From a virus: a stretch of DNA of 21,979 bases. The notes beneath the pieces are model-generated. The model ran no database searches, was not told where the DNA came from, and saw only the letters and a list, made by a program, of their open reading frames with translations. The stretch lies in the IMG/VR virus record IMGVR_UViG_3300029787_000118, positions 18,317 to 40,295 of that record. One strand, written 5' to 3'. Position numbers and translations under genes: made by a program. Of the stretch, positions 1,561 to 20,667 are shown in pieces; within the stretch, counting starts at the first letter, position 1, and each line of letters opens with the position of its first letter.

Positions 1561-1964
1561 AAGGTTCTCAAACTGCTATGATTGGTGGTACTAGTGGAGC
1601 TTATAACGGAGCTAACTCATCTACATGGTCAACAACTTCTGACAAAAGAATTAAAAAGAACATAAAAGATAATAATACTGGTCTTGATGCTATTAAAGAA
1701 ATACAAGTTAAAAACTTTGAATATAGAACTGAAGATGAAATTACAGATTTTGAAAATCCTGCATCTGCTGTTGTAAAACAAGAAGGAGTACAACTAGGAG
1801 TTATAGCTCAAGAAATAGAAACAATTTTACCTGATATGGTTACTACACAATCAACAGGTGTAAAAGCTGTAAATCCTGATAACCTAACTTGGTACTTGGT
1901 AAACGCAGTAAAAGAACTATCAGCAGAAGTAGAAGAATTAAAAACAAAATTGGAGAATAAATAA
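1..1964 (+). CDS. Tail fibre/adhesin with NTAVG repeats and C-terminal S74 self-cleaving chaperone domain (5' partial)
   Basis: The frame is open from base 3, in phase with the stop at 1962-1964, so the gene starts upstream of the window. The Met at 480 is internal because the same repeat continues before it. About 510 residues are tandem 17-residue units of the type NTTGxxNTAVGxxALxx, a pattern common in repetitive bacterial and phage surface adhesins and expected to form an elongated trimeric beta-rich shaft. The last roughly 110 residues (from about base 1638) are an S74-type intramolecular chaperone: TSDKRIKKNIKD with the putative nucleophile Ser at 1638-1640 and Lys five residues later, then GVIAQEIETILPDMV. 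In this family the domain trimerises the fibre and then cuts itself off before the Ser. The C-terminal tail is a short heptad-like helix. The stop overlaps the next ATG by one base. Role: host recognition or side fibre; the virion-attachment end is not visible. Confidence 0.85.
   Translation, partial: AVGSSALNANTTGTSNVGVGANALEANTTGLQNTSIGHLAGTDITTGRENVAVGYAALFTEDTNNYNTAIGARALQTSNGADNNTAVGYSALTLNTTGVNNTAVGRSALVANTTGSNNTAVGYLTLDANTTGVENVAIGDQALTTNTTASYNTSVGGESMKANTTGAENSALGQRALFANTTGDYNAAVGLSSLGNNTTGSNNAAVGYLALYQNTTADNNTAMGKSALQVNTTGTGCVAVGALALDASNANANTAVGYLSLTSNTSGASNTAVGKDSLSANTEGAGNTAIGKDCLKATTTGGNNTAVGIDSLTSNTTGASNVAIGTSALQTATTRLGNTAVGFNAARDLDTTGVVAIGYKAMESSTSSYDCVAVGASSLLNNSSGNQNTAVGFNSLSQNTTASNNTAVGNSALLLNTTGTVNTAVGVLALSSNTTSGGNTAVGYKALEDDTTGGENTGFGANAGGANTTGTQNVYVGERAGNYVTAITTGSYNTYLGMATQASSSSVGNEIVIGRIQAGKGSQTAMIGGTSGAYNGANSSTWSTTSDKRIKKNIKDNNTGLDAIKEIQVKNFEYRTEDEITDFENPASAVVKQEGVQLGVIAQEIETILPDMVTTQSTGVKAVNPDNLTWYLVNAVKELSAEVEELKTKLENK
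1638..1655 (+). other. Predicted S74 autocleavage site and Ser-Lys dyad, first fibre
   Basis: Codons for S-D-K-R-I-K. The known dyad of this chaperone family (phage endosialidase and MYRF-type domains) places the catalytic Lys five residues after the cleavage-site Ser, and that spacing is present here. Cleavage is expected just before the Ser. This is a family-based prediction; nothing in the DNA shows that cleavage occurs. Confidence 0.6.
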
Positions 1965-4900: not shown

Positions 4901-6730
4901 GGTGATGCTATTACGACTGGTGAGCAAAATGCAGCTTTTGGTGATGCGGCTTTAAGTGCTTGTACTACAGGTACAGATAATGTTGCTATAGGAGACCAAG
5001 CTTTAAAAGCAAACACTACAGCTTCAAACAACACTGCTGTTGGTTCAAGTGCTTTATTAGCAAACACTACAGGTGCTTCAAATGTAGCTGTAGGTGCAAG
5101 TGCTTTAACATCTAACACCACTGCAACTGGTAATAATGCAATAGGATTGAGTGCTTTAGGTAGTAATACAACTGGTGCTAGTAATAATGCTATGGGGCAA
5201 CAAGCCTTGCTTAACAACACTACTGGGACTAACAATACAGCCATAGGTCATGTTGCTCTTGGAGATAATACAACAGCTAGTAATAACACAGCAGTTGGTT
5301 ATTTAGCCTTAAATGCAAACACTACAGGTGAATTAAATACAGCAATAGGCGTACAATCTCTTGATGCAAATACAACTGGTTCTTCAAATACTGCATTAGG
5401 TATAGATTCTTTAGGTGGTAATACCACTGGTGGTTCTAATGTTGCTGTCGGTAGAGGTGCTTTATATAGTAATACTACAGCTTCAAACAATGTAGCAGTT
5501 GGTCTTAACGCATTAGTAACAAACACTACAGGTGCTCAACAAGTAGCAGTAGGTGGTTCAGCTATGGAATCAAATACCACAGGGTATAACAATACTGCTG
5601 TTGGTTGGGAATCAATGAAAGCAAATACAACTGGTGCTTTAAATGTAGCTGTTGGTCAACAAGCCATGTTAGTAGCTACCACAGGTGATAAAAATGTTTG
5701 TGTAGGTCATAACAGTTTAGCTGCTTTAACCACAGCAGATAATAATACAGCTATAGGTGATAATGCTATGGCAGTAAACACTACAGGTGCTAATAACGTA
5801 GCGGTTGGTGCTTTAGCATTAGATGCAAACACAACAGCAAGTAATAATACAGCAATAGGTTTTAAATCTTTAACAGCAAATGTTACAGGTACTTATAACA
5901 CAGCAGTTGGGTTTAATGCTGGTGCTGCTACAACAGCAAATTATAATACAGCAATTGGTTATCTAGCTTTGCAAGATGCTACAGCAGGAGCAAATACAGC
6001 AGTTGGAGGTGAAGCTGCAAAAGACATCACAACTGGGCATTCTAATGTGGCTATGGGTACTTCTGCTGGTTTTGCTATTACAACTGGTCTATATAATGTT
6101 TCCATAGGTCATACTTCTGGTGGTGCAACTACAGGTCAAGGAAATGTTGCTATAGGTTATTATGGTGGTAGTTCAATGACTACAGGGTCTCAAAATGTAG
6201 TCATAGGCAGACAGTCTCAATTATCTACTGGTAGTGGAAATAATCAAATTGTAATGGGTTATCTTGTATCAGGTTCAGGTGATAATAACTTTACTTTTGG
6301 TAATCAAAGTACAGACAGTAATATTGCTTTTGGTGCTACATCTATTACAGCTCCTTCAGATATAAGATTAAAAGAAGATATACAAGATGAAGAAGTAGGC
6401 TTAGATTTTATAAACGATTTAAGACCTGTTACTTTCCAATGGAAAAAAGAAAAAGATATACCTTCAGACATGAGAGCATATAAAGAAGGCTCTGAAGAAA
6501 GAACTATGAATGGTAAATACAATCATGGTTTTATAGCTCAAGAAGTTAAAGAAGTGATTGATAATCATAATTTAAAAGATGGTTTTGATATGTGGCAAGA
6601 AGATGAAGCAGATGGAAGGCAAAGGGTTGCACCTGCTGCTATTATGTCTGTCATGGTTAAAGCAGTCCAAGAACTGTCTACGCAAGTAGATGAATTAAAA
6701 GCCGAAATACAAACTTTAAAAGGAGAATAA
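1964..6730 (+). CDS. Giant multi-repeat tail fibre protein with C-terminal S74 self-cleaving chaperone domain
   Basis: This 1588-residue fibre is complete. Its start is set by GGAG at 1952-1955, eight bases before the ATG, and by a TAATG overlap with the previous gene. Residues 1-100 resemble a marine phage fibre N-terminus (FNNEYNQLVNAF..TGHSHDGT), presumably the virion-attachment end. Residues around 104-190 hold two motifs of the type IDLGTTSLRFKD and NTYDLGSSSQEWRDLYIDGT. Then come three 35-residue repeats (224-328), five 13-residue ELNILDGVT-type repeats (353-417) and two 71-residue repeats (about 484-625). Next are a TAERPTSPAAGYFRYNSTTG segment common in phage fibres, a Gly5 hinge near 708, and about 35 NTAVG units (850-1450). 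The C-terminal S74 chaperone has Ser1465 and Lys1470 and contains GFIAQEVKEVI. A short coiled coil ends the protein. It lies beside a paralogous fibre, so the two may form different appendages or parts of one. No receptor can be named. Confidence 0.88.
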   Translation: MAGYTRQSSFADGDTITSALFNNEYNQLVNAFHNSTGHSHDGTAASGPVIGLIGDAGETSPNNKVLIDTTNNFIEFYVQVSSSSVQQLYIADGAIIPVTDSDIDLGTTSLRFKDTYTDTITTTGNVAVGGNLTVTGTTTFNGGTITMGDAATDNVVFGADVDSNIIPDDDNTYDLGSSSQEWRDLYIDGTAHIDTLDVDINATIAGTLGVTGVLTGTSLDISGDIDVDGTTNLDVVDIDGAVDMATTLTVAGNVDFNGDLDVDGTTNLDVVDIDGAVDMATTLAVAGNVDFNGDLDVDGTTNLDVVDIDGAVDMATTLTVGGEIAAASLDISGNVDIDGTLETDALSINSTAVTSTAAELNILDGVTSTAAELNILDGVTSTATELNLLDGVTSTTAELNILDGVTASATDINLIDGITNGTVIASKAIITDANKDITGGRNITISGELDAATLDISGDADIDGTLEADAITIGGITLAETISDTVGAMVSSNTETNITVSYDDSDNTLDFVIGTLNQDTTGLAATATALATARTIHGVSFDGTANIDLTEVVQDTVGAMFTSNTESGITVAYQDADGTVDFTVGTLNQDTTGLAATATALATARTIGGVSFDGTANITPTTFAAATFSGDLNVDSGVLFADVSTNRVGINQTSPDVSLDVGSNTDAIHVPSGTTAERPTSPAAGYFRYNSTTGDFEGYTDAWGAIAGGGGGTAPAIDTMTGDGSDTTLTLTSAPANENATVVTIDGVVQHKDTYAVSSNTLTFSEAPPTGTKVECITWTNTAVNSALLVQDADGDTQIQVEESSDEDKIRFDTGGTERAVIDSSGLTISGGLSVDGGTIKLDGNYPTGTGNVALGDTALDSLVSSNYNVAIGHNAATAFSSNNGYSVFIGGFTGQNTTTGDYNTVVGSAAFSDNTTGSNNTVLGTSALGDNTTASNNTAIGFEALRLNTTGTRNTAVGRSTGAAITTGSYNVLMGAFTGDAITTGEQNAAFGDAALSACTTGTDNVAIGDQALKANTTASNNTAVGSSALLANTTGASNVAVGASALTSNTTATGNNAIGLSALGSNTTGASNNAMGQQALLNNTTGTNNTAIGHVALGDNTTASNNTAVGYLALNANTTGELNTAIGVQSLDANTTGSSNTALGIDSLGGNTTGGSNVAVGRGALYSNTTASNNVAVGLNALVTNTTGAQQVAVGGSAMESNTTGYNNTAVGWESMKANTTGALNVAVGQQAMLVATTGDKNVCVGHNSLAALTTADNNTAIGDNAMAVNTTGANNVAVGALALDANTTASNNTAIGFKSLTANVTGTYNTAVGFNAGAATTANYNTAIGYLALQDATAGANTAVGGEAAKDITTGHSNVAMGTSAGFAITTGLYNVSIGHTSGGATTGQGNVAIGYYGGSSMTTGSQNVVIGRQSQLSTGSGNNQIVMGYLVSGSGDNNFTFGNQSTDSNIAFGATSITAPSDIRLKEDIQDEEVGLDFINDLRPVTFQWKKEKDIPSDMRAYKEGSEERTMNGKYNHGFIAQEVKEVIDNHNLKDGFDMWQEDEADGRQRVAPAAIMSVMVKAVQELSTQVDELKAEIQTLKGE
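2633..2947 (+). repeat. Three tandem 105-bp repeats (35 aa each) in the giant fibre
   Basis: Units start at 2633, 2738 and 2843. Each encodes a variant of D-L-D-V-D-G-T-T-N-L-D-V-V-D-I-D-G-A-V-D followed by MATTLTVAGNVDFNG. Protein identity between copies is nearly complete, while the DNA differs at many third positions. This points to an older duplication kept at the protein level. The third copy diverges at its end (GGEIAAA). Confidence 0.85.
3020..3214 (+). repeat. Five tandem 39-bp repeats (13 aa, VTSTAAELNILDG type)
   Basis: Five consecutive units of 13 residues follow the pattern V-T-S-T-A-A-E-L-N-I-L-D-G. The last is more divergent (VTASATDINLIDG). The AELNILDGVT motif is frequent in phage fibre shafts and resembles the short 'phage tail repeat' family. 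It probably forms a trimeric shaft segment. Confidence 0.85.
3413..3838 (+). repeat. Two tandem 213-bp repeats (71 aa each) in the giant fibre
   Basis: Copies begin at 3413 and 3626, each starting D-T-V-G-A-M and containing GTLNQDTTGLAATATALATA and then GVSFDGTANI. The GVSFDGTANI box is common in phage tail fibres. The two copies are clearly homologous in both protein and DNA. Confidence 0.8.
4511..6330 (+). repeat. Tandem array of about 35 51-bp (17-aa) NTAVG repeats in the giant fibre
   Basis: This is the same repeat family as in the preceding gene (NTTGxxNTAVGxxALxx), here making up residues about 850-1453. Some stretches are strongly alike between genes: the ESMKANTTGA box occurs at about 475-505 and again at about 5610-5640. 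Such tracts are potential substrates for recombination between the two fibres or with other phages. Confidence 0.85.
6356..6373 (+). other. Predicted S74 autocleavage site and Ser-Lys dyad, giant fibre
   Basis: Codons for S-D-I-R-L-K (Ser1465, Lys1470) have the same Ser-plus-five-Lys spacing as in the neighbouring fibre. They are preceded by a beta-rich tail and followed by the conserved GLDFINDLRPVTFQWK segment typical of the chaperone. This is a family-based prediction. Confidence 0.6.
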
Positions 6731-7281: not shown

Positions 7282-9726
7282 ATGGATAAAAAAAATAATA
7301 ACAAATTAAAACAGTATAAAAAGAAATATTATACTGGTGGTAGAGTTGATATGTCTACAGGTGGTAGAGTAAAAGCTGCTGTAGGTGGTATACAAAAAGC
7401 TCCTATGAGTCGTAAAGTACCTCCTATGTTTATAGAAAGAGAAGAAGAGCCTATGGTGAGTACTCCTAGTACTACAAAACAACCTACATTTACTCAAGCT
7501 CCAATAGAATCTAAAAGACCCGATGTTGTTCAACCTCAAGAAACATTTATAGAAAACTTAGATACTGCTGCAAACAATATAGATACTACATTTAGACAAG
7601 CTCCAACAACCGGTAAAGGCTCTGACCAAATGTTTATTGGTAGAGAAGGTGAAGTTAGACCTGCTATGTCAGTAAAAGATATTGAAGATGGAAGAATTGG
7701 AGATGAACGTAATGAGCCTAAAGACCCTCCAAATGGTCAAGCTACAATAGTAAGACAAGGATTTATTTATGCATGGAATGGTTTTACATATGTAAATACA
7801 AATCAACGAGCAAGTACAGATACAGATACAGATACAGATACTGAGACTGAACTAACTGCAGAAGAGTTAGCAGCTCAAGAAAAAACTAGAAGACAAGATG
7901 TAGCTAGACAATCTGCAGAAGCTGCTGCAAGAGGTGAAGTTCCAGAAGCTGCACAAATACCTGATGCTGAACAAGTAGGTTATCAAAGAGATGCACAAGG
8001 ACAGTTAGTTTTAGATGAACAAGGAAATCCTATTGTTTTAAAAGAACAACAAGTTACAACTATGGACCCTGTAACTAGAGCTAGAACTGATATAAGAGCT
8101 GAAGGTCAAGCTCCAGAACAAGTTACTACAGTAGATAAAGTAGAAACTGCAAAAACTCCAGAAACTATTACAACTTCTAAAATAGAAGATAAAGATTTAT
8201 CTATTGTTCCTGAACAAGCTCAAGTAGAAGTTGTAGAAGGTGATGTATCTGATGAAGCTATTGCACAAGCTGCACAAGTAGATAGAGTTGCACCAATAGA
8301 AGGTGCTGATGTTGATATACCAGAAGGTGCTTTAGCAGAAAGAGTTGTTGGTAAAATTAGTGAAGGTGCTAAAGCTACAGCAGCTATGAATGCTGGTACA
8401 AGCTTGTCAAGAATTACAAGAGCTAAAAAACAATTAAGTAGAGCTGGACTATCTGATGCAGATATACAAGAAATAGGTAATGACCCCGAAGCTTTAGAAG
8501 ATAGACTAGCAGACTTTAGTGAAGAACAAAGAGGTATCATAGAAGGATTACCTGAAGAAGCTTTAGTATCTACACAGATAAATGGTTTGTTAGAAGGTAT
8601 GGAAAACGGTGAGATACCTGTATGGGCTAGACCTGCTGTTGCACAAGTAGAACAGATGTTAGCTAGAAGAGGTATGTCTGCTTCTACAGTAGGTAGAGAC
8701 AATCTTTTTAACGCTATTATTCAATCAGCTATGCCTATAGCTCAAAGTAATGCACAAGCTATACAACAAAGTGTAAGTCAACAAAAAACTATAGAAGCTC
8801 AAGCTGCTGAAGCTAATGCACAAAGAATGCAACAAACAGCTTTAACTAATGCACAAAATGTATTTCAAATGGATATGTCTCAGTTTAGTGCTGACCAACA
8901 AACAACCTTATCTAACAGTAAGTTTATGCAAACTGTTGGTTTAACAGAAGCTAGTAATGACCAACAAGCTACAATACAAAATGCTGTAATAGCTTCACAA
9001 ATTAATTTAGCTGAAGCTGATTTTTATCAAAGAACTCAAGCTCAAAATGCTCAAGCTTTCTTACAAATGGATATGCAAAACTTAGCAAACGAGCAACAGT
9101 CTAATGTATTAAAAGCTCAACAAACTCAACAACGTATGTTATCTAATCAATCAGCTCAGAATGCTGCTGCTCAGTTTAATGCTGCTAGTGAGAATCAAAC
9201 ACAGCAGTTTATGTCTAGTTTGAATGCACAGATTGACCAGTATAATACTTCACAAATGAATGCAGTTTCTCAATTTAACGCAAGTCAAGAGAATGCTGCT
9301 GCAGCTAGAGATGCTAATAGAGCTGCTGATGTTGAAAAATTTAATACTCAACTTGAAACACAGATAGACCAGTTTAACGCTAACCAAGATTTTGCAAGGA
9401 ATCAATGGAACGCACAAAACCAAGCAGTAGTAGAACAGTCTAATACTCAGTGGAGAAGAAATACTAACACTGCAAACACTGCAATGCAAAATCAAATCAA
9501 TGCACAAAATGCTCAGAACTCTTTTGCAATGTCTCAAACTGCTCAATCATTTTTATGGCAAGAGTTAAGAGACCAAGCTGATTATGATTTTAGAAACAGT
9601 GAAAATGAAAAGAATAGAATTGCACAACTTGTAAATACTGCACTAGCTTCAGACCCTTCTAAATATGGTGGAAGTGTTAAAAGTATTGAACAGTTAATTG
9701 GTTTTATTGTAGGAGATTTAATTTAA
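7282..9726 (+). CDS. Large Gln/Asn-rich helical virion protein with N-terminal double TGGRV motif
   Basis: This is an 814-residue protein with a weak ribosome site (TAGGT at 7269-7273). The first 16 residues are Lys-rich. TGGRVDMSTGGRV at 18-30 then repeats a five-residue box after a three-residue spacer; nearly the same arrangement occurs in the 1985-residue protein. A Pro/Thr-rich low-complexity stretch follows (to about 190) and ends in a Thr-Asp run. From about 390 the protein is helical. It has a GMENGEIPVWARPAV..MLARRGMSAS segment and then a long tract (about 480-770) rich in Ala, Gln and Asn with recurring QFNA, FLQMDM and ANEQQ boxes. I recognise this architecture from large structural proteins of marine phages, but not an experimentally assigned function. 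A rod-like or pilot role inside the virion is inferred from the composition and from its ejection-type neighbours. Confidence 0.8.
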   Translation: MDKKNNNKLKQYKKKYYTGGRVDMSTGGRVKAAVGGIQKAPMSRKVPPMFIEREEEPMVSTPSTTKQPTFTQAPIESKRPDVVQPQETFIENLDTAANNIDTTFRQAPTTGKGSDQMFIGREGEVRPAMSVKDIEDGRIGDERNEPKDPPNGQATIVRQGFIYAWNGFTYVNTNQRASTDTDTDTDTETELTAEELAAQEKTRRQDVARQSAEAAARGEVPEAAQIPDAEQVGYQRDAQGQLVLDEQGNPIVLKEQQVTTMDPVTRARTDIRAEGQAPEQVTTVDKVETAKTPETITTSKIEDKDLSIVPEQAQVEVVEGDVSDEAIAQAAQVDRVAPIEGADVDIPEGALAERVVGKISEGAKATAAMNAGTSLSRITRAKKQLSRAGLSDADIQEIGNDPEALEDRLADFSEEQRGIIEGLPEEALVSTQINGLLEGMENGEIPVWARPAVAQVEQMLARRGMSASTVGRDNLFNAIIQSAMPIAQSNAQAIQQSVSQQKTIEAQAAEANAQRMQQTALTNAQNVFQMDMSQFSADQQTTLSNSKFMQTVGLTEASNDQQATIQNAVIASQINLAEADFYQRTQAQNAQAFLQMDMQNLANEQQSNVLKAQQTQQRMLSNQSAQNAAAQFNAASENQTQQFMSSLNAQIDQYNTSQMNAVSQFNASQENAAAARDANRAADVEKFNTQLETQIDQFNANQDFARNQWNAQNQAVVEQSNTQWRRNTNTANTAMQNQINAQNAQNSFAMSQTAQSFLWQELRDQADYDFRNSENEKNRIAQLVNTALASDPSKYGGSVKSIEQLIGFIVGDLI
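7815..7838 (+). repeat. Short 6-bp microsatellite (TACAGA x4) encoding Thr-Asp repeats
   Basis: Four perfect TACAGA units are followed by a degenerate continuation, giving the run STDTDTDTDTETE. The unit is a multiple of three, so slippage would change protein length but not the frame. It sits in a low-complexity linker of the 814-residue protein. Confidence 0.8.
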
Positions 9727-9737
9727 CAGGAATTAAT

Positions 9738-10763
9738 ATGGGATTATTTAAAAAATTAAAAAAAGCATTTAAAAAAGTTACAGGCTTTGTAAAGAAAAAT
9801 ATAAAAAGAGTAGTTAAGTTTACTAAGAAACAATTTAAAAGAATAACTTCTAGTAAAGTTCTTAAAGCTTTAGCTATTGCTGCTGCAGTCGTAGTCACGG
9901 GAGGTGCTGCTCTCGGTGCTATGGGAGCCACTGCAGGTGCTGGTGGTTTTACAGGTTGGATGGTTGGTGCAAGTCAAGCAGTTACTGGAGCTACAGTAGC
10001 TGGTTTAAATGTAGGAGCTGTTATGAAACCTTTTGCTGCTGCAGGTAGTGCAATTGGTACAGGTGTTTCAGCAGTTACAGGAATTAATTTAGCAACTCCC
10101 GCAGCTTCTATACCGGGAACAATTCCTAGTGCTGCTGGTACAGGTGCTACAGGTACTGCTGCTACAGGTGCTTCTACACTTACTGCACCTGCTGCAATAA
10201 CTACAAACCCTGCTGCTGCTGCTCAAGCTAGTACTGCAGCATCAAGAGGAGCTTTAAATGTAACAGCAAGTGGTCTTCCCGGAGCTACTACAGGTTCATA
10301 TGCTACATCTACAGGAATGGTAGGTACAGCTACTGGTACTGCTGCACAACAATTAGCAGTTACTACTAGCACTCTTCCGGCTGCTACAGCAGGTTCATAT
10401 GCTACATCTACAGGAATGGTAAATGCTTTAGCACTTCCAGCTTCAACTGCACCTGCTCAAGCAAGTTGGTTTGCTAGACATCCTAAACTTACCTCTGCTT
10501 TAGGAACAGTAGGTACAAACGTAGCAACAGGTGTAGCAACTGGAGCTGCTATGCAATATATACAAGGAGACCCTGAACAACAAGGTTCTATGGCTGGTGC
10601 TGCTGTTGAAGGTGGAGAATATTTAGACCCTTTAAAAGTTTATGCAGCCCAACAAGGAATCAATACAGATGGTATATATCAACACATGATGTATGGTAAT
10701 CAAGACCCAAGCACACAATATGGTTCTGAATTATTTAGACAACAAACATTTGGAGTAGCTTAA
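9738..10763 (+). CDS. Basic, Gly/Ala-rich putative membrane-active virion protein
   Basis: This 341-residue protein has AGGA at 9728-9731 six bases before the ATG. Residues 1-43 contain 17 Lys/Arg and no acidic residue, in an amphipathic pattern (FKKLKKAFKKVTGFVKK). Residues 44-62 are a hydrophobic Ala/Val/Gly helix. Residues 60-250 are Gly/Ala/Thr-rich and low-complexity, with a duplicated LPxATxGSYATSTGMV box (GSYATSTGMV at 186-195 and 219-228). The C-terminal 90 residues are more ordinary and acidic to neutral. A cationic helix followed by a membrane helix and a glycine-rich tract is what one expects of a protein that binds DNA or penetrates a membrane during genome ejection. I do not recognise a named family, so that role is inference. 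Confidence 0.78.
   Translation: MGLFKKLKKAFKKVTGFVKKNIKRVVKFTKKQFKRITSSKVLKALAIAAAVVVTGGAALGAMGATAGAGGFTGWMVGASQAVTGATVAGLNVGAVMKPFAAAGSAIGTGVSAVTGINLATPAASIPGTIPSAAGTGATGTAATGASTLTAPAAITTNPAAAAQASTAASRGALNVTASGLPGATTGSYATSTGMVGTATGTAAQQLAVTTSTLPAATAGSYATSTGMVNALALPASTAPAQASWFARHPKLTSALGTVGTNVATGVATGAAMQYIQGDPEQQGSMAGAAVEGGEYLDPLKVYAAQQGINTDGIYQHMMYGNQDPSTQYGSELFRQQTFGVA
10291..10421 (+). repeat. Exact 32-bp direct repeat pair
   Basis: Identical 32-base copies lie at 10291-10322 and 10390-10421, 99 bases (33 codons) apart and in the same frame. They encode the duplicated GSYATSTGMV box. Flanking codons are also related (LPGATT versus LPAATA). The perfect DNA identity, unlike the diverged fibre repeats, suggests a recent duplication or gene-conversion event. 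The intervening 67 bases could be lost by recombination without a frameshift. Confidence 0.85.
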
Positions 10764-11491
10764 TGAGTACACCTAAAAGACAACCTAATCCTGTTATATC
10801 TTCTAGCTTAAGTGAAGCTGCTGCTTCTTCTGTACTAGATGGATTAGATGCAGGTTTTACTATAGATGAAATAGCACCTGATACTGGTCCTAAGATAAGA
10901 GGTGAAGCTAAGTTTAGTCAAGAAGGATTAGATAATCTTGTAAACTTGTCAAGTAAAGGAGCTGTTATTCCCGGACAATCTCTTACTAATAATCCAGAAA
11001 ATCCTTATCCTTGGGAAACTCCACCAGAGTTTGCAAACCCTAGAGAAGCTTTAGATGATGTTGTAGGCTCTATAATGCAACCTGAAGCTATGAAGAATAT
11101 TGTAAGTGCTTTAGCTCAAGGTGCAGCAGTTGCAGATTTAGGTACTGCTATTTTATATGCTAAGTTTAACGAAGGTAAAATATCTCCTGATGCTATGATG
11201 CTGTTAGCTGAACCAGTTATGTATATTATTATGGCTATAGGTGAAGAAGCTAATATTAAATATAATATAGAAGGTAACGACTTAGATGAATTTGATGAAG
11301 AAGATGAAACAGAAAATTTTGATAGTAAAGTAAATGAATTTAGAAATGTATTAAGTGATATTAAGAAAGGAGCTACTAAAAACATAGAGCCTTCTAAGAT
11401 TGATAGTAACGTAGTTCCTAAAGGCATATTAGCACAGGTAAAAGAAAAAGGTCCAGAGATTAAAAGTTTATTAAGTAAAGGAGAAGAGTAA
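10763..11491 (+). CDS. Conserved marine phage structural-type protein, function unknown
   Basis: This 242-residue protein is coupled to its upstream neighbour by TAATG, with GGAG at 10752-10755. The most recognisable element is PGQSLTNNPENPYPWETPP at residues 70-88, a Pro-rich box that I associate with a conserved structural protein of marine T4-like phages. A helical domain follows (about 95-165), with a hydrophobic stretch MLLAEPVMYIIMAIGEEA near 146-163. Then comes a very acidic segment (about 173-188) and a charged C-terminus. The hydrophobic stretch is broken by Glu and Pro and is more likely a buried helix than a membrane span. Its place among ejection-type genes supports a virion role. 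No catalytic motif is seen. Confidence 0.78.
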   Translation: MSTPKRQPNPVISSSLSEAAASSVLDGLDAGFTIDEIAPDTGPKIRGEAKFSQEGLDNLVNLSSKGAVIPGQSLTNNPENPYPWETPPEFANPREALDDVVGSIMQPEAMKNIVSALAQGAAVADLGTAILYAKFNEGKISPDAMMLLAEPVMYIIMAIGEEANIKYNIEGNDLDEFDEEDETENFDSKVNEFRNVLSDIKKGATKNIEPSKIDSNVVPKGILAQVKEKGPEIKSLLSKGEE

Positions 11492-13206
11492 TGGCTATAG
11501 AAGATTATTTTAAAGGTAGTAGTCAAGCATACGGACAGTTAGCTGGTTCGTTATTAGCAGGTAGAAGAAAAGAAGATAAGAAAGAAGCTAAGAGAGCTTT
11601 ACTAGCTTCTACAGTTATGGCAACTTTTGGAGCTTTACAAAACCAACAAAAACAAAGTATTATTGATGGTTCTAATGATGTTAAAGATAAGTATCAAGAT
11701 ATATTTGATAATAACGAAGAAATATATAATAAAAAACGTGGAGCTAGAGCAGATTATTTAGCTTATAAAGAAAATCCAAATGATTATATTGAAACAAAAG
11801 CTGCTGAATTATTTAATAAAGATTTAGAATTACAAGCTGAGTTAGGAACTAACCCTTATTCAAGGATAAGTAAAGCAGATTTAACTCCTGAAAGTTATGA
11901 GTCTGCTATGGAAGTTTTAGATGATAAAAGAAAAATAGCTAAAGAGTATATAGAAGCTCAAGCCGGTAATGCAGCAGTAACTACACAAACATTTACAAAA
12001 TTTAATGCAGCAGCTAAAGAAGAATATGAAGCTGCAATGGCTGAAGTAGAAGATGACCCTTACAAGCAAGGTCTTATTAGGTCTGCATTTAGTAAAATAT
12101 TTGGAACAGGTGAAGAAAAGAAAAATAAATTACTTACAGATTTACAAACTGCAAAAACTAAAAGAATGCAACAAGAATCTACGATACCTTATATGGATAC
12201 TGTTAAAGGTAAAGAAGAATTAATTAACAAACAAATTAAAACTGGTGAAGAAAAAGCATCTAAAGATAGTTTTATGTATGAAACAAAAACTATGAAATTA
12301 GAGAAACAAGAAAAAGAAATTATAAAATCTATAGAAGAAGCAAGAACTAAAAATATATTAGCTGGTTCAAAAGAAGAAAAAGAATTAGAAGATAATGTAA
12401 TTAGTGCATACAGAAAAGGTTTAAAAGTTAGTAAGATAAAAGAACTTGATGAAATACAAGAAAATGATATACCAGCTTTTGTATCTACTTTTACAAAAGT
12501 TGACCGTATTAGAGAAGATGCTCCCGACATGGACCCAACAGATTTCTTAACTGTTAAAGAAAGAGACTTATATGATTTAGGAATGGGTATAACTAGAGAT
12601 GACATTAATGCTGTAGAAGAAATAAGAAACACAGAAAATAGATTAGAGGTTGTTTCTCAAATAAATTCAATAATAGGTCAAGAAACTGACGTTAGTAAAA
12701 AACTTTCTATGATAGACGGTAATTTTGGTACAAATGGCGAAGACGCTACAGGTCTTTCTAGTGTATATATTAGTAATGTTATTAGAGCTAAAACACATCT
12801 TATGAATAAATATGATATGGATGATATAGAAGCTTTACAAACTGCAATGGATATGCAATTAGAAGGGGTTTCTATAGGAAAAGGTGGAAGTACTACGGAT
12901 GATGAATATAATAGAGGAGGGTTTAGAAGATTGTTTACTTCACAAAAACCTACTCATGGAATTGAATATGTAAATCCAGATGTAGAAAATTTACCAATTA
13001 TACCAGACACTGCTAATCTACATGCTCAAAACTTAAACGAGTATAAATATTTACAGAATAGAAAGTACATAGATGATGAAGGAAATTCACAAACTTTAAT
13101 ACCTGATAGAGTTGGTAAAGAATATACTATAGATGATGAAGACTTTACAGTTTCATTTATTGTAAATAACGAAAATAAATGGATTCCATTAGTTACTTAT
13201 AAATAA
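11491..13206 (+). CDS. Helical putative internal virion protein
   Basis: This 571-residue protein overlaps the previous stop (TAATG), with GGAG at 11480-11483. After a short Gly/Ala helix (AYGQLAGSLLAGRRKEDKK) it is almost wholly charged helix rich in Lys, Glu, Asp and Ala as far as about residue 430. It has no membrane span and no signal peptide. The last 100 residues contain an RGGFRRLFTSQKP box, then a Tyr/Asp-rich beta-type tail ending WIPLVTYK. I do not recognise the family. Length, composition and position before the 1985-residue protein resemble the pairing of long helical inner-core proteins in other tailed phages, but that is an analogy and no shared motif supports it. Confidence 0.78.
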   Translation: MAIEDYFKGSSQAYGQLAGSLLAGRRKEDKKEAKRALLASTVMATFGALQNQQKQSIIDGSNDVKDKYQDIFDNNEEIYNKKRGARADYLAYKENPNDYIETKAAELFNKDLELQAELGTNPYSRISKADLTPESYESAMEVLDDKRKIAKEYIEAQAGNAAVTTQTFTKFNAAAKEEYEAAMAEVEDDPYKQGLIRSAFSKIFGTGEEKKNKLLTDLQTAKTKRMQQESTIPYMDTVKGKEELINKQIKTGEEKASKDSFMYETKTMKLEKQEKEIIKSIEEARTKNILAGSKEEKELEDNVISAYRKGLKVSKIKELDEIQENDIPAFVSTFTKVDRIREDAPDMDPTDFLTVKERDLYDLGMGITRDDINAVEEIRNTENRLEVVSQINSIIGQETDVSKKLSMIDGNFGTNGEDATGLSSVYISNVIRAKTHLMNKYDMDDIEALQTAMDMQLEGVSIGKGGSTTDDEYNRGGFRRLFTSQKPTHGIEYVNPDVENLPIIPDTANLHAQNLNEYKYLQNRKYIDDEGNSQTLIPDRVGKEYTIDDEDFTVSFIVNNENKWIPLVTYK

Positions 13207-13218
13207 GGATTATATAAT

Positions 13219-16200
13219 ATGCCGACTTTCGGAGACCTTAGTAAATATAAACAAAAATCTAATGCATATACTGTACCTAGTTATGTTGCTCAACAAAAAT
13301 ATTCCCTTACTGATTTAAGAAAAGATGAAGAATTTAATAAAGTAACAGAAAGATTTTTAACTTCTTTAGGAGAGGGAGAAACTGTTGGAGATTTATTTGG
13401 TTATTTTAGAGGAGCTGATTATAATTTAGCTGATGCTACTAAAATGGTTTTTGATAGTGGTAAGTTTACTGACCAACAAAAAACAGATTATCAGTACTTA
13501 CGTAGTAAATTTGATAATGCAGATTTAGGTGGTTTTGGTGAGTGGGTACGTGCAGGTGCTAATGTTACTAAAGAAATTGTAACAGACCCTACTATGATAG
13601 CTAGTGCTTTACTTGTTCCTTGGACAGGAGGAACTTCTGCTGCAGCTCGTATAACTGCTGGTAAAGCTGTACAGTCTAGTTTAAAAAAATTAGCTAATAA
13701 AGAAATAGCTGAAGGTGTTGCTAAAGGAGTATCTAAACTTCCCGGTCAAAAAATAAAAGCTCCTTTAAGTAAAAATGCTAAAACTGTTGTTGCTAGTACA
13801 GAAGGTTTTATCTATGGTAGTACTGCAAACTTTACAAAACAACATGCAGATGTAAATACTGATAGAAGAGAAGAAGTAAGTCCTGAAGAAAGTTTAGCTA
13901 TGGGAGCTATCACTGCAGCAATTCCTGCTGTTTTTAGAGGAGCTGGTGCAGGATATACAAAGTTTAATAAGTCTGTAGCTGATAGAAGAGCTGCCAGAAT
14001 TGACGGTAACGAAGATTATAAAGTAGGAATTATTGATAAAGGTATTGAAAAAACAGATGCTCTTATAGAATACGTTACTCCTAACATAAGAATACTTACA
14101 GGTTTTGTAAATAAACCTACTGCTTTACTTTTAGATAAAATGGAAGCTTCTCCAACACTTGACAAAGTTGTAAAGTATTTTAGATATGATGCAGCTAGAA
14201 GTATAACTGCAAAAGATTATGATGTTTCTCAAAAAGTTTCAAGTAGAAGTTTTTATGAAGATGTAAATTCTTTAATAGGTTTTAGAAGTGAGCAACTAAA
14301 AGCTATAATAGACCCTTTAAAAACTAAAGGAACTGTTACTGTTCCTAAGTTAGGTTCTAGAGATTCTTTTTTTAAAATTCCATTTAAAGATGCTCCTAAA
14401 GTAGAAAAACAAAGTTACTTTAAACGCCAAAGAATTGCAGATAATGTCAACGATGCATTAGCTTATTATCTAAGGACAGGAAGAAAAACTGTAACAGTTG
14501 ATGGCAAACAAATTAAATTAGAACAAGCATTTAAACTTACAAATAAGTCAACAGACGATATAATAACAGCCGGACAAGGTATTAAAAAACTAATGTCTGA
14601 TATTAGAAATGATGCAAAAAGAGAAGGGTTAGAGATTGGTTTAATAAAAAATTATTTACCTAGAGGTTTTTCTTACGGAGATGTTAAAGCTGAAATAAAA
14701 AACTTAGAAAAAGGTATAGAAGGTAAATTAGTAAAAGAGTTAAAAACTAAAGAAGGATTGAAAACTAACGAAGATGTTATAGATTTATTACAAGATATTA
14801 TTAATCCTTCTAAAACAGCAGGTAAAAGCTATACTGAACTTGCAACTGTTGGTAAAGGTGAAGCAAGAAAAGGTCTTTTCTTTCCAAAAACTACACCCGG
14901 TTTAACAAAAGAAAGAACTCTTAAAAACATAGATGAAAATAATATTATTGATTATTTAGATAACAATGTTGAAAATTTATTGTATGATTATATACATCAG
15001 TCTTCTAGTTTTATTCAAAGAAAAGCTGGATTAGGCGAAGATTTAGATGAGTTTATAAAAAGATTTGTAAATCCTATTAAAGAAGAGTTAGCAGCTAAAG
15101 GTAAAAAACTTACTGAAAAAGAATATAAAAGATTAGAAGATATTTATTTAGTTACCACTGGTCAAGTTCAACAAATAGATAATGTAATTGGTAGAACTTT
15201 ATCAGACATTGCTGTGGTTGGAAACCAATTAGCTTTACTTCCTCTTGCTACTATAACCAGTTTATCAGAAGTAGCTGTTCCTTTAGTTAGGGGAGCAGGT
15301 AAAAAATCTTTTCAAAAAGGTAAAACAGAATCTGGAGTAGATAAAGGAGGAGTAAGAATTCTTTGGGAAACTGCAGGAGACTACAGAAAAATGTGGTGGA
15401 ATGATTTAGTTAAAAAAGATATTACAGATGCTAGACCAGAATCTTTAAAAGAGTTAAACAGATTTAATAGAGCTATGAATAGAGCTGGAGAAGATAGGTC
15501 TCTTGCTATGTATGGTCAAGGTTTTGGAAGACGTGCAACTCAAGCACAAAATAAATTTTTTAAAATAAACTTACTGCATGACTGGACAAGATTTGTACAA
15601 CTTACAAGTTTTAATGTTGGTAAAGCTAAGATGTATGAAAACTTACATGAGCTTACTACTAATAAAAGTATTTCTTCAAAAAGAAAAATAAGATTAACTA
15701 ATGAATTAAAAGAGTTAGGTGTAGATGTAACAGCAGGTAAAAGATGGGTACAGTCTGGTGGAAAAGCTTCTGGTAAGTTTTATGATGAAAACTTTTTACC
15801 CAGTGCTGCAAGATATGTAGATGAAGTTATCATGAACCCTACTGCTGCAGCTAATCAAAAACCTTTATGGCATTCAATGCCTTCAACAAGATGGGCTTTT
15901 GGTTTAATGGGTTTTCCCACTGCTTTTAGTAATACGGTATTAAAAAATGCAGCTAGAGAAGTTGCTAAAGATGTTAGAGGTAAAGAGTTTGTAGGAACAC
16001 CTCAAGTTTTATCAGGTGTTACTGCTATGACAGCTATAGCTATGTTTGGTAATACTCTTAGAAGTAAAGGTCGTAACTTAGAAGAACTTGAAAGCGGTGA
16101 AACAGATATAGGTGAAGAAATACTTGAAGCTGCAATTAGAACAGGGTTACTAGGACCGGGTGAGCAAGTATATAGAACTGTAGAAGATAAAGAGTATACT

Positions 16201-19176
16201 AATTTAATTAGGGCAATTACTCAAAGGTTTACTGGACCGGCTGTAAATGACGTTATTAAGTTTTTTGATAGTTGGGTAGGTCCTTTAGCTATAGGAGTAG
16301 ATAAGATTCCCGGTATTGCTCTGTTAAGAACTACTAATCCTGAAACTTACAAAGAAATAAAATCTCTTGCTAAAAAAGCTGACAAGGCTGCAGGTTTTAC
16401 TGCTCAAAGAAAAACTAAAGAGGAGGAAAAAGAAACACCTGTGCCTTTGTACTCTACAGGTGGTAGAGTTAATAAATTTACAGGTGGTAGTTTAACTGAC
16501 GAATATAAATATTATAGTCAATTATCTGAAGAAATTCCTGAAGCAATAGAATCAACTAAAGAATTTTTAAAAGAAAGAGAAGAGGGTAGAGATGAGTCTC
16601 ATAAAAAGATAGCAGAGGCTACTAAAGAGGGAGATGTTAGAAAAGGTTTTGAAGCTTTTGAAACTTTACCAATTGGAGAACAATTAGCAGGTTACATGAA
16701 TCCTGTTACTAACGCACCCTTATCTGCTACAGGTGCTTTAATATATGCTGAAAAAGCTAAACCAAGTGTTAAAACTTTAAAAGAGTTTGCAATAGATTTT
16801 ATTAATCCAACAAAAAATATACTACAAAAAACACCTATTAAAGTAGAAGACACTATGTCTGCAGGTATATCAGCTATGGAAGCTTTTGGAGTTGTTCCTT
16901 TTATTGGTGGCGTAGGTAAATTTGGAAGTAAAACTTTAAGAAAGATACAAGCTAGAAGAGCTGATGATACTATGGGGGGAGGTAATGTACCCACTAATAT
17001 TGTAGATGATTCTGTAGCAGTAGACATGGCTGGTTATAAATCTACTATAGAAGAAACTGCTGAAAAAAGTGTAACCAACTTTAAAACAGGCGAACAATTT
17101 TTAAATTTTTTAAAAGCTAAAAATAAAGATAATAGTCCTAAAAGAGAAGGATTTAAAAAAGAAGAATTAGAGTTTATAGATTTAGACAATATACAAGTTA
17201 CTAAAAATACTACACCTGAAGAAGTTTTAAACTACGTTAGAGAAAACAGACCAAAGCTTTATAGAGTTGTTAGAAGTGAAGATAATCCTACTATTAGAAC
17301 TAGTAATGTTGATATGAATACATCTGTAGAAGAATTTTTAGAAATAGATAGACCCATGACTTCTGAATTAGAAAATGATTATGTAAACATGGAGCTAGAT
17401 AGAAACATTCAACTAAGAGAGGAAGGAGAAGGCTTTTATAAAAATTTATCTGATGAACAACTTGAAGAATTAGCTTATAAAAATACTGAAAATTTAAACG
17501 TAGAATATTTAACTGGAGAAATTGATGAAACTCCTATAGCTTTATTTGGAAATCAAAGAGGATACGAAGCTACTGTAGGTATAGGAGATAACAGAATATT
17601 TCTCACAGATGACTTGGTATCTAGAGATGAAGCTTTAATACGATTAAATATTTATGCTAGAAATCAAGGTTTATTAGAACCGGTTTCTACTATAAACCCA
17701 GATGTTCCTTTAAAAACTCAAGTACCTGAAAGTGTTTTAAAAGGTGAAGATACTTTATCTACAAGTTATGGTAATGACTACAAAGAATACAGACTTCCTA
17801 TGGGAGGAGCTGCTAATTATAGAGAAATTACAATTCATTTAGACAACCCTAAAACTCCTACAGTTTTTACAGATAATCATCTTGAAGGAGCTGACCAAAT
17901 TTTACACTATAGAATTTCTGATAGAGTAGATACTGAAGGTAACAAAGTTTTATTTGTAGAAGAAATACAATCAGATTTACATCAGGCTGCTAGAAAAAAA
18001 GGATATATTTCAGAAGACGGAAGTGTTCCAGACTATCCTTATAAAGGTTTAGGATTTGTTGATGTTGCCATGAAAGATGTTATGCAACTAGCAGTTAAAG
18101 AAGGCTATGATAAAGTTGCATTTACTGATGCAGCTACTCAAATAACTAGAAACAAAAAATCTTTAAATTATATTGATAGTATACAAATTAGTAAAGTTCC
18201 AACAGAAAAAGAAATATTACAAAGTGATGAGTTTACAGATAAACTTAATCAAAATTTAAATACAAAATATAATGATTTTAAAAATTTTGGAGACCCTGAT
18301 ATTCTTAAAGGAGAGGGGTTAGAAGGTAATAAAGTTTATGAAAAAGCTAAAGAATCTATAGATGAATATAAAAAACTTAGGGTAGGACTTTCTAGGAATG
18401 GTGAGTTTACATCTGAGAGCATAGAAAACGAAATGAAAGATTTAACTTTAGGACAATTAAAAAGTAAATATAACGTAGGTAGAGCTAAATGGATTGTAAA
18501 AGATTTTGGTTTAACTGGAGTAGTAAATACTCAAAAAGATACAGGAAAAGCTTTGATGTATGAATCCAAAGATTATTTAAAAAATTTAACAATGGATAAA
18601 GACGGTATTGGAATGGGTGAAACTTTTAATACTAGAACATTACAAACTGATGAAGAGTTATTAGCAGAACTTCCAGAATCAATAAGAGAATCTGTTAAAC
18701 AAGATATTAAAACTAAAAAAGATATTACAGTTGATGTAGGTAAATTAGAAGGTAGCGGTAAAAAGTTTTTAGATTTGTACTCAGATAAAATAAGTTCTAC
18801 AGCTAAAAAATTAGGTAAACAATATAAACAACAACCTAAGTTTACTTCTGTTCTTTATAGTAAAAATGAAAAACTTACTCCACAACAAATGTTAGAAATG
18901 TATAAAGATAGAAAAGAAGCTAAAAACTATGGTGAGTACATAGAAAAATATGGAGAAGAAAATAATATTCCAGAAGAATTAAAAGTTATATCGTTAGACG
19001 TAACACCAAATATGAAAGAACCTATGGCAGTATTTGCAAAAGGTGGATTAGTAGAAGGTAAAGATGACGTACCGTACACTAAAGAAAATCCAGCAGATAG
19101 AGTTGACCCTTTTACAGGACAACCTTACTCAGCACAAATGGAGGAATTAGGATTAGATGTTTTTCAAGAAAGATAA
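13219..19176 (+). CDS. Giant putative DNA-ejection protein with C-terminal polyvalent-protein module
   Basis: This protein has 1985 residues, and its ribosome site AAGGA at 13205-13209 overlaps the previous stop. Residues 110-245 include Ala/Gly-rich hydrophobic stretches (MIASALLVPWTGG; MGAITAAIPAVF). A NYLPRGF box is at 478-484. Residues about 650-960 contain hydrophobic helices and YVDEVIMNP..KPLW..MPSTRWAFGLMGFPTAF (866-905), resembling 'large polyvalent protein' helical domains. TGGRVNKFTGGSL at 1080-1092 marks a junction. Residues 1288-1935 match a polyvalent module: GEQFLNFLK, EELEFIDL (1315), VTKNTTPEEVLNYVREN, the signature LFVEEIQSDLHQAARKKGY (from 1578), AVKEGYDKVAF, GKKFLDLYSDKI (1847) and SLDVTPNMKEPM (1925). 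The C-terminus has a second Gly-Gly box (FAKGGLVEGKDDVPYTKENP, 1939). Polyvalent proteins are thought to enter the recipient cell with the DNA. This supports an ejected virion protein acting early on the host, but its biochemical activity is unknown. Confidence 0.8.
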   Translation: MPTFGDLSKYKQKSNAYTVPSYVAQQKYSLTDLRKDEEFNKVTERFLTSLGEGETVGDLFGYFRGADYNLADATKMVFDSGKFTDQQKTDYQYLRSKFDNADLGGFGEWVRAGANVTKEIVTDPTMIASALLVPWTGGTSAAARITAGKAVQSSLKKLANKEIAEGVAKGVSKLPGQKIKAPLSKNAKTVVASTEGFIYGSTANFTKQHADVNTDRREEVSPEESLAMGAITAAIPAVFRGAGAGYTKFNKSVADRRAARIDGNEDYKVGIIDKGIEKTDALIEYVTPNIRILTGFVNKPTALLLDKMEASPTLDKVVKYFRYDAARSITAKDYDVSQKVSSRSFYEDVNSLIGFRSEQLKAIIDPLKTKGTVTVPKLGSRDSFFKIPFKDAPKVEKQSYFKRQRIADNVNDALAYYLRTGRKTVTVDGKQIKLEQAFKLTNKSTDDIITAGQGIKKLMSDIRNDAKREGLEIGLIKNYLPRGFSYGDVKAEIKNLEKGIEGKLVKELKTKEGLKTNEDVIDLLQDIINPSKTAGKSYTELATVGKGEARKGLFFPKTTPGLTKERTLKNIDENNIIDYLDNNVENLLYDYIHQSSSFIQRKAGLGEDLDEFIKRFVNPIKEELAAKGKKLTEKEYKRLEDIYLVTTGQVQQIDNVIGRTLSDIAVVGNQLALLPLATITSLSEVAVPLVRGAGKKSFQKGKTESGVDKGGVRILWETAGDYRKMWWNDLVKKDITDARPESLKELNRFNRAMNRAGEDRSLAMYGQGFGRRATQAQNKFFKINLLHDWTRFVQLTSFNVGKAKMYENLHELTTNKSISSKRKIRLTNELKELGVDVTAGKRWVQSGGKASGKFYDENFLPSAARYVDEVIMNPTAAANQKPLWHSMPSTRWAFGLMGFPTAFSNTVLKNAAREVAKDVRGKEFVGTPQVLSGVTAMTAIAMFGNTLRSKGRNLEELESGETDIGEEILEAAIRTGLLGPGEQVYRTVEDKEYTNLIRAITQRFTGPAVNDVIKFFDSWVGPLAIGVDKIPGIALLRTTNPETYKEIKSLAKKADKAAGFTAQRKTKEEEKETPVPLYSTGGRVNKFTGGSLTDEYKYYSQLSEEIPEAIESTKEFLKEREEGRDESHKKIAEATKEGDVRKGFEAFETLPIGEQLAGYMNPVTNAPLSATGALIYAEKAKPSVKTLKEFAIDFINPTKNILQKTPIKVEDTMSAGISAMEAFGVVPFIGGVGKFGSKTLRKIQARRADDTMGGGNVPTNIVDDSVAVDMAGYKSTIEETAEKSVTNFKTGEQFLNFLKAKNKDNSPKREGFKKEELEFIDLDNIQVTKNTTPEEVLNYVRENRPKLYRVVRSEDNPTIRTSNVDMNTSVEEFLEIDRPMTSELENDYVNMELDRNIQLREEGEGFYKNLSDEQLEELAYKNTENLNVEYLTGEIDETPIALFGNQRGYEATVGIGDNRIFLTDDLVSRDEALIRLNIYARNQGLLEPVSTINPDVPLKTQVPESVLKGEDTLSTSYGNDYKEYRLPMGGAANYREITIHLDNPKTPTVFTDNHLEGADQILHYRISDRVDTEGNKVLFVEEIQSDLHQAARKKGYISEDGSVPDYPYKGLGFVDVAMKDVMQLAVKEGYDKVAFTDAATQITRNKKSLNYIDSIQISKVPTEKEILQSDEFTDKLNQNLNTKYNDFKNFGDPDILKGEGLEGNKVYEKAKESIDEYKKLRVGLSRNGEFTSESIENEMKDLTLGQLKSKYNVGRAKWIVKDFGLTGVVNTQKDTGKALMYESKDYLKNLTMDKDGIGMGETFNTRTLQTDEELLAELPESIRESVKQDIKTKKDITVDVGKLEGSGKKFLDLYSDKISSTAKKLGKQYKQQPKFTSVLYSKNEKLTPQQMLEMYKDRKEAKNYGEYIEKYGEENNIPEELKVISLDVTPNMKEPMAVFAKGGLVEGKDDVPYTKENPADRVDPFTGQPYSAQMEELGLDVFQER

Positions 19177-19180
19177 TAAA

Positions 19181-19630
19181 ATGGATATAGAACTTTGCAA
19201 AGCTGAAATAAAGAGACACGAAGGCGAAGTGTTAGAAATTTATATGGATAGTCTAGGTTATAAAACTCTTGGAGTTGGACACCTTTGCCAACCTAACGAC
19301 CCTGAATATAACTGGGAAGTTGGCACACCTGTCACACAAGAAGTTGTAGACATGTACTATGAAGATGACTTTGAAAAGCACTATAAGGAAACCATACATG
19401 TATTTGGTAGCGAGGAAGACTTTGAAAAGCTACCAGAGCCTGTACAAAGAGTGTTAGTCAATATGTGTTTTAATCTAGGTGGTACAAGACTTTCAAAGTT
19501 TCGTAACATGTTAAAAGCTTGTAGAGAACATAACTGGAAAGAGATGTCTGTACAAATGGAAGACAGTCGTTGGTTTAAACAAGTAGGCAGACGTAGTATA
19601 GAACTACAAAAAATAATTTTAGAACAATAG
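19181..19630 (+). CDS. T4-type lysozyme (endolysin, GH24)
   Basis: This 149-residue muramidase would cleave the MurNAc-GlcNAc bond of peptidoglycan at lysis. The motif RHEGEVLEIYMDSLGYKTLG has Glu14, Asp23 and Thr29. Their spacing (9 and 6) equals that of Glu11, Asp20 and Thr26 in T4 lysozyme, and VGHL follows as expected. Downstream, VQRVLVNMCFNLGGTRLSKF and DSRWFKQVGRRS match the conserved second half. It has no signal peptide or membrane anchor, so release through a holin is expected. I chose ATG 19181, five bases after the previous stop (19174-19176), because MDIELCKAEIKRHEG aligns with the usual enzyme start. An in-frame ATG at 19157 with AGGA at 19149-19152 would add eight residues and overlap the upstream gene by 20 bases; it cannot be excluded. 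Confidence 0.93.
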   Translation: MDIELCKAEIKRHEGEVLEIYMDSLGYKTLGVGHLCQPNDPEYNWEVGTPVTQEVVDMYYEDDFEKHYKETIHVFGSEEDFEKLPEPVQRVLVNMCFNLGGTRLSKFRNMLKACREHNWKEMSVQMEDSRWFKQVGRRSIELQKIILEQ

Positions 19631-20597: not shown

Positions 20598-20667
20598 ATT
20601 TGAATTACCACTTATAAGTATATTTGTATTCTTATTTATTATAAGTGTATTAGAGCAACTACAATGA
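20578..20667 (+). CDS. Candidate 29-residue single-span membrane peptide
   Basis: The frame encodes a short charged start (MTKEKIKFELP) followed by a strongly hydrophobic helix (LISIFVFLFIISVL) and ends EQLQ. It starts 20 bases before the stop of the upstream gene, and its own TGA overlaps the csgF ATG (ATGA), so it bridges the lysis genes and the curli genes. The ribosome site AAAGG is well placed. Size and topology fit tiny phage membrane peptides such as lysis regulators, but no family can be named. If it is not translated, this 66-base gap is an intergenic region containing an inverted repeat. Confidence 0.5.
   Translation: MTKEKIKFELPLISIFVFLFIISVLEQLQ
20609..20647 (+). repeat. 9-bp perfect inverted repeat with 21-base loop
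   Basis: CACTTATAA at 20609-20617 is repeated inverted as TTATAAGTG at 20639-20647. The arms are AT-rich and no U-run follows, so it is not a convincing terminator. It lies inside the 29-residue frame and just upstream of csgF, where it could modulate csgF translation or be a chance consequence of AT-rich coding. Confidence 0.45.

What the first reader, a model, noticed from the sequence alone, without database searches (positions are those of the whole stretch)
7333..7371. TGGRVxxxTGG(R/S)(V/L) signature shared by two different virion proteins
The 814-aa protein has TGGRV-DMS-TGGRV at residues 18-30 (bases 7333-7371), and the 1985-aa protein has TGGRV-NKF-TGGSL at 1080-1092 (bases 16456-16494). 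The spacing is identical and the surrounding proteins are otherwise unrelated. A third Gly-Gly box, FAKGGLVEGKDD, is near the giant's end. I recall GG(L/R)V boxes near the ends of many marine phage proteins without a known role. A processing site, an assembly or packaging tag, or a hinge are all possible.
Basis: partly seen in the sequence, partly recalled or inferred. Interest (0 to 1): 0.65.

Follow-up and report, generated by a model that had tools for sequence, protein, structure and literature searches.

The report
GG-box seams in phage ejection proteins
A short glycine-glycine motif in two very different proteins of a marine phage is real and conserved; it marks the seams where a giant infection protein has had its enzyme 'cargo' (cell-wall lysozymes, ADP-ribosyltransferase-like domains and others) swapped between viruses, and it also forms a conserved N-terminal tag on a second protein.

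Summary
Observation confirmed to the base. The motif is conserved and specific. GGx[VILMF] boxes are enriched in the p814 family (3.5x; paired boxes 50 vs 2.2 expected) and in module-bearing giants (1.8-1.9x), and occur in a third protein (p305, outside the window), but not in most other virion proteins.

Relatives explain the giant's doublet: STGGRV is the C-terminal box of a ~1,080-aa core, FTGGSL the first box of an ~850-aa cargo, so the spacing equal to p814's is probably coincidence. A further box opens a conserved tail module. Across IMG/VR, 14 core-end types combine with 13 kinds of C-terminus at these boxes; fused cargos include LysM, SLT, Phage_lysozyme2 and ART-PolyVal-like domains. 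DNA identity jumps from random to ~0.75-0.8 at the GG codons. Contigs with fused Phage_lysozyme2 lack the stand-alone lysozyme gene (0/7 vs 28/42).

In p814 the boxes are an isolated N-terminal island under purifying selection, before a hypervariable stretch.

Best reading: conserved joints (flexible linkers, perhaps docking sites) in modular ejection proteins of HMO-2011-type podophages. Virion location is inferred from gene order. Cleavage at GG is untested; no protease was recognised.

The parts
7282..9726 (+). p814, first ORF of a five-ORF cassette that by position is a putative ejection cassette
   Evidence: relatives in HMO-2011, CRP and HTVC phages; no PHROG or Pfam match
7333..7371 (+). 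two N-terminal GG boxes TGGRV-DMS-TGGRV of p814, consensus R.D[MY][RS].GGRV
   Evidence: conserved island with mixed synonymous codons in 35 distinct sequences
7384..7389 (+). third GG in register (residues 35-36 of p814)
   Evidence: both glycines kept in most of 35 distinct sequences (33 and 28 of 35)
9738..10763 (+). p341, cassette ORF 2; no box enrichment
10763..11491 (+). p242, cassette ORF 3; no box enrichment
11491..13206 (+). p571, cassette ORF 4; no box enrichment
13219..16452 (+). core of the giant (residues 1-1078)
   Evidence: PHROG virion structural protein 3.2e-20 and endolysin family 2.9e-51; relatives 84-89% identical up to residue ~1084
16453..16470 (+). core-terminal box STGGRV of the giant
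   Evidence: relatives read PLYSTGGLV at the same place
16477..16494 (+). cargo-initial box FTGGSL
   Evidence: cargo relatives read FQLGGLVDEYQYYSQLSEE at the same place
16477..19032 (+). cargo of ~850 aa between the boxes, function unknown
   Evidence: 74% identical to the L086 cargo although the two cores align at ~28%; no Pfam match
19033..19176 (+). C-terminal tail module FAKGGLVEGKDDVPYTKENPADRVDPFTGQPYSAQMEELGLDVFQER and stop
   Evidence: 280 relatives in IMG/VR; alignment A1; architectures
19157..19630 (+). stand-alone lysozyme gene overlapping the giant's stop
   Evidence: PF00959 1.7e-8; all 36 contigs with a terminal module have this gene directly behind the giant

Best explanation
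The GG boxes are conserved joints of modular head/ejection proteins in HMO-2011-type (SU10-portal) marine podophages. The giant is a delivery core to which different enzyme cargos are attached C-terminally. The joint reads [YF][AS][TK]GG[LI][VI]xG plus a ~35-aa tail module, and in most fused forms a second GG box opens the cargo. Recombination exchanges cores, cargos and the downstream lysozyme gene at these boxes. The boxes themselves probably act as flexible, partly sequence-specific linkers that let each module fold and pass the portal independently. In p814 the triple box is a short N-terminal tag before a hypervariable spacer. Shown here: module boundaries, exchange, purifying selection, specificity to a few proteins. 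Inferred: location in the virion, ejection, linker or docking role.
For: Core homology stops and cargo homology starts at the box in the window giant. 14 core-end clusters carry 13 kinds of C-terminus; one core cluster carries up to 8 kinds and one fused-cargo cluster sits on up to 6 core clusters. For 56 contig pairs with unrelated cores, DNA identity is 0.3-0.47 upstream, 0.74 at the GG codons and, aligned from the stop codon, ~0.8 through the last part of the module and the lysozyme gene. 43 of 45 internal modules have GG within 7 aa after LG[FL] (background 3.1%). Cargos: LysM 4.9e-15, SLT 2e-23, Phage_lysozyme2 2.5e-25 and 1.7e-20, ART-PolyVal 3e-5 to 2e-4, below Pfam's cut-off. A third protein, p305 (L002:12389-13303), has its conserved 140-aa domain bounded by boxes, with an identity step at the box. 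In the isolate HTVC103P, gp52 has STGGRV at residue 1455 followed by a Phage_lysozyme domain at 1536-1644. Enrichment is specific, and p814 box residues are invariant with synonymous codon variety.
Against: No structure: both AlphaFold models are poor (mean pLDDT 55 and 51), so 'the box is a linker' rests only on a low-confidence coil at 1058-1091. Strong sequence constraint is more than a plain linker needs. Some p814 relatives (HTVC103P, Rhizobium and Vibrio phages) lack the paired box, so it is not essential to that family. Virion location rests on gene order and PHROG names; no sequence relation to the SU10 ejection proteins was found.
Confidence: 0.65

Rival explanations
1. Processing sites: a protease cuts at or near the GG boxes and frees each cargo, for example the lysozyme, from the giant after assembly or delivery.
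For: Boxes lie between independent enzyme modules. Contigs with fused Phage_lysozyme2 have no PF00959 gene anywhere in the contig (0/7 vs 28/42), so the fused enzyme may have to do the work of the free one. No internal start codon is enriched after the box. Polyvalent proteins are thought to be processed by metallopeptidases (PMC5512222).
Against: No prohead protease recognised among the late ORFs scanned. Among the long ORFs, HExxH occurs only in L003, L146 (same contig as L084) and L168. The contig is incomplete, so a protease could be out of view.
Confidence: 0.2
2. Docking or packaging tags: the boxes bind a common partner (portal, scaffold or each other) and bring p814, p305 and the giant into the head.
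For: In p814 the box is an isolated conserved island at the N-terminus, with random DNA identity on both sides and invariant R, D, GG and V. The same core motif occurs in three otherwise unrelated proteins.
Against: Box position varies between families, and many giants carry several boxes between cargos, which suits joints better than one tag. Three other cassette ORFs lack it.
Confidence: 0.3
3. Passive recombination seams: short conserved DNA at the boxes is only the place where strands cross, without function in the protein.
For: The DNA step is sharp at the GG codons, and 17 nt TCTACAGGTGGTAGAGT are identical between the p814 and giant boxes.
Against: Box codons vary synonymously while residues stay fixed, and module protein is conserved where module DNA is only ~66-78% identical.
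Confidence: 0.12
4. Double-glycine leader peptides of the C39 type.
For: An N-terminal GG after 18-27 residues in p814.
Against: The leader is lysine-rich without the usual hydrophobic positions -4, -7 and -12 (own knowledge); boxes also occur deep inside and at the C-terminus of proteins; no C39 peptidase seen in the ORFs scanned.
Confidence: 0.02

Closest known systems
Polyvalent proteins of phages and conjugative elements (Iyer et al. 2017, PMC5512222)
   Same: Large late-gene proteins that join ART, lysozyme and other domains in changing order, thought to be delivered with the DNA
   Different: A search of that paper's text for glycine, linker and GG motif found none; most giants here, the window's included, lack a metallopeptidase signature and carry a defined tail module
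Ejection proteins of T7 (gp14-16) and SU10 (gp20-24)
   Same: Five consecutive ORFs at the end of the structural cluster, last one giant; mosaic exchange of hydrolase domains is known (PMC8954989, PMC9509320)
   Different: No detectable sequence relation to SU10 gp20-24; here exchange is at the C-terminus and marked by a recurring motif
Siphophage tape-measure segment GGxVxGPGTGxSDSIPAxLSxGEF (recalled; p305 matches several tape-measure PHROGs)
   Same: p305 of this genome carries GPVEGPGSGVSDSIPARLSDGEFV between two GG boxes
   Different: The giant's tail module is a different sequence; common origin was not tested
Polymorphic toxins (PMC3482391, PMC5576092)
   Same: Conserved delivery part with exchangeable C-terminal enzymes after a conserved junction
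   Different: Immunity genes were not looked for; recognised cargo here is mostly cell-wall hydrolases

Membership tests
Podophage ejection (internal virion) proteins | Position in the late structural cluster of an SU10-like genome | tested here: met
   SU10_portal 5.7e-29, SU10_adaptor 2.1e-12, capsid and terminase upstream on the same contig; five ORFs as in SU10 gp20-24
Podophage ejection (internal virion) proteins | Sequence relation to SU10 gp20-24 | tested here: not met
   hhalign of all five families against SU10 proteins, probabilities below 4%
Podophage ejection (internal virion) proteins | Present in virions and lost on genome release | not testable with these tools
   needs virion mass spectrometry
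Polyvalent proteins | Several enzymatic effector domains in one late-gene protein, exchanged between relatives | tested here: inconclusive
   seen across the relatives, but the window's own cargo has no recognised domain
Polyvalent proteins | Metallopeptidase (HExxH) domain | tested here: not met
   no HExxH in the window giant; among long ORFs only in L003, L146 and L168
Polyvalent proteins | ART-PolyVal domain | tested here: inconclusive
   3.2e-5 to 2e-4 in L023, L150 and L175 cargos, below the Pfam cut-off; none in the window giant
C39 double-glycine leaders | N-terminal leader ending in GG with hydrophobic positions | tested here: not met
   lysine-rich N-terminus; boxes also internal and C-terminal
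Polymorphic toxin systems | Immunity gene next to each toxin | not tested
   downstream ORFs were only checked for lysozyme

The most novel reading that the evidence does not exclude
The boxes are sequence-specific recognition sites (cleavage or docking) in a plug-in delivery system: cores with a GG socket carry interchangeable effectors, and in some phages the only recognised lysozyme is fused to the ejection protein and must be released at the box for lysis. Several unassigned cargo families found only in contigs without a lysozyme gene would then be new cell-wall hydrolases.
Probability: 0.25. Interest if true: 0.8.

Novelty: new variant of a known kind. Interest (0 to 1): 0.58.

Why it matters
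It turns a vague motif into a usable rule: in these marine phages GG boxes mark module ends, so giant 'hypothetical' proteins can be cut into units and their cargos classified. The complementarity between fused hydrolase cargo and a free lysozyme gene predicts which unknown cargos are lysins, and raises a direct question: how does a phage lyse its host when its only recognised lysozyme is welded to a putative virion protein?

Tried and rejected
DNA copy between the two window boxes: 17 nt are identical, but codon bias can account for much of it; left as a lead. Internal translation start at the box: ATG within four codons after GG in 4 of 38, all one family, background 7%. Fold of the cargo: model too poor, only weak GNAT-like Foldseek hits with E above 1e-3, not used. 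Fold of the core: no meaningful match. Cargo in cellular genomes: none found. PDB sequence search: nothing usable. SU10 homology: none. Tail module in named phage records: none by tblastn. C39 leader: rejected.

Full report
Setting. The window is the right 22 kb of a 40,295-base IMG/VR contig. Upstream lie a terminase, an SU10-type portal, a P22-like capsid protein and an SU10-type adaptor. p814 has relatives in HMO-2011, RCA-roseophage and HTVC103P-type phages, so this is an HMO-2011-like marine podophage. Five consecutive ORFs (p814, p341, p242, p571, p1985) end the structural cluster, as do the five ejection proteins gp20-24 of SU10 (PMC9509320). Sequence relation to those was not found, so 'ejection protein' is an inference from gene order.

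The observation. TGGRV occurs 3 times in the contig's ORFs against 0.012 in shuffles, but GGx[VILMF] as a class is not unusual overall (23 vs 21; 19 vs 13 without the glycine-rich fibres). Conservation settles the matter. In the p814 family 57 of 66 distinct N-termini carry a box (12.2 in shuffles) and 46 a close pair (2.1 in shuffles), with spacing 8 dominating. By protein class, boxes are enriched in p814 (92 vs 26.6; pairs 50 vs 2.2), in giant cores (106 vs 57) and in other module-bearing proteins (91 vs 51), and at background in capsid, adaptor, lysozyme, p341, p242, p571 and unassigned ORFs. One tail protein family (tail535) is at 1.8x and the p157 family is high with n = 3; these were not followed up.

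What the giant is. Its closest core relatives (84-89% identical) leave the window protein's sequence at residue ~1084. L084, for example, continues there directly into GGLVEGKDDVPYTKENPADRVDPFTGSPYSEQMARLG, the same module that in the window protein stands at the very C-terminus. Conversely L086 shares the window's cargo at 74% with a core of only ~28% identity. In other cargo relatives the cargo opens with FQLGGLVDEYQYYSQLSEE, matching the window's FTGGSLTDEYKYYSQLSEE. The doublet TGGRV-NKF-TGGSL is therefore a joint of two boxes of different descent.

Generality. A profile of the tail module finds 280 relatives in IMG/VR (80 loci kept). In a dereplicated set 47 modules are terminal: 41 end in VFQER-type tails and 6 stop at the module itself. 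45 are internal, of which 43 have GG within 7 residues after LG[FL]. Internal cargos include LysM, SLT transglycosylase, Phage_lysozyme2, ART-PolyVal-like and several unassigned families. Fourteen core-end clusters combine with 13 kinds of C-terminus. Between contigs with unrelated cores DNA identity is 0.3-0.47 up to the box and 0.74 at the GG codons; aligned from the stop codon it is about 0.8 through the end of the module and the downstream gene. In those contigs the module plus lysozyme gene is one shared 3' segment joined to different cores.

Third protein. p305 (L002:12389-13303, between portal and scaffold) has boxes near residues 124 and 262; relatives match mostly the stretch 124-264, with N-terminal partners of very different length and further boxes in them. 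DNA identity again steps up at the box. Inside this domain lies GPVEGPGSGVSDSIPARLSDGEFV, which matches tape-measure PHROGs.

Isolates. HTVC103P gp52 carries STGGRV near residue 1455 followed by a Phage_lysozyme domain at 1536-1644. HMO-2011 gp25 and CRP-1 gp35 carry paired boxes; the p814 relatives of CHOED, RHph_I3_11 and HTVC103P do not, so the box is not essential to that family.

Selection. In 35 distinct p814 boxes R, D, G, G and V are invariant while their codons vary. The conserved island runs from the lysine-rich N-terminus to the third box, with random identity on both sides. This points to a function in the protein beyond a strand-crossing site.

Lysozyme complementarity. All 36 contigs with a terminal module have a stand-alone lysozyme gene directly after the giant; only 12 of 34 with fused cargo do. 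Over whole contigs, the 7 with Phage_lysozyme2 have no PF00959 gene, against 28 of 42 others that do (Fisher 0.0014). Contigs with LysM, ART-like-only or two small unassigned cargo families keep the free gene. The remaining contigs without either carry unassigned cargos; one such family (alignment A5) has an invariant E followed by GxYQ, which resembles lysozyme folds by eye only. The contigs are fragments and share ancestry, so the p-values overstate independence.

Mechanism. I take the boxes to be conserved joints. They separate modules that must fold, pass the portal and act independently, and they let modules be exchanged. The specificity of the residues suggests recognition by a partner or protease as well, which I cannot distinguish. 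AlphaFold models of the cargo and core are of low confidence and give only a coil at residues 1058-1091 around the box.

Verdict. The motif is real and meaningful; the interpretation as hinge or linker is best supported, tag possible for p814, processing open.

Noticed in passing
window 20664-21173 and 21121-21978: CsgF (5.8e-18) and CsgG (2.1e-47) homologues of the curli secretion system behind the lysozyme gene; such genes are already reported in pelagiphages (PMC9599517).
   Followed up: partly
L002:12389-13303 (outside the window): p305 between portal and scaffold carries a tape-measure-like GPGSGVSDSIPARLSDGEFV segment inside a domain bounded by GG boxes.
   Followed up: partly
L019, L041, L044, L143, L149, L157, L163, L174 cargo ends (alignment A5): Unassigned cargo family with invariant E ... 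GxYQ ... H, found only where no lysozyme gene was seen downstream; candidate new lysozyme-like family.
   Followed up: partly
window 7354-7370 and 16453-16469: 17 identical bases TCTACAGGTGGTAGAGT encode the boxes of both proteins.
   Followed up: partly
window 3-1964 and 1964-6730: Two adjacent fibre genes made of NTTG/NTAVG-type repeats with similar C-terminal ends that look like self-cleaving chaperone domains.
   Followed up: no
L002:17917-18399 and 5181-5441: Runs of N in the contig; the first fibre ORF of the window begins behind such a gap.
   Followed up: no
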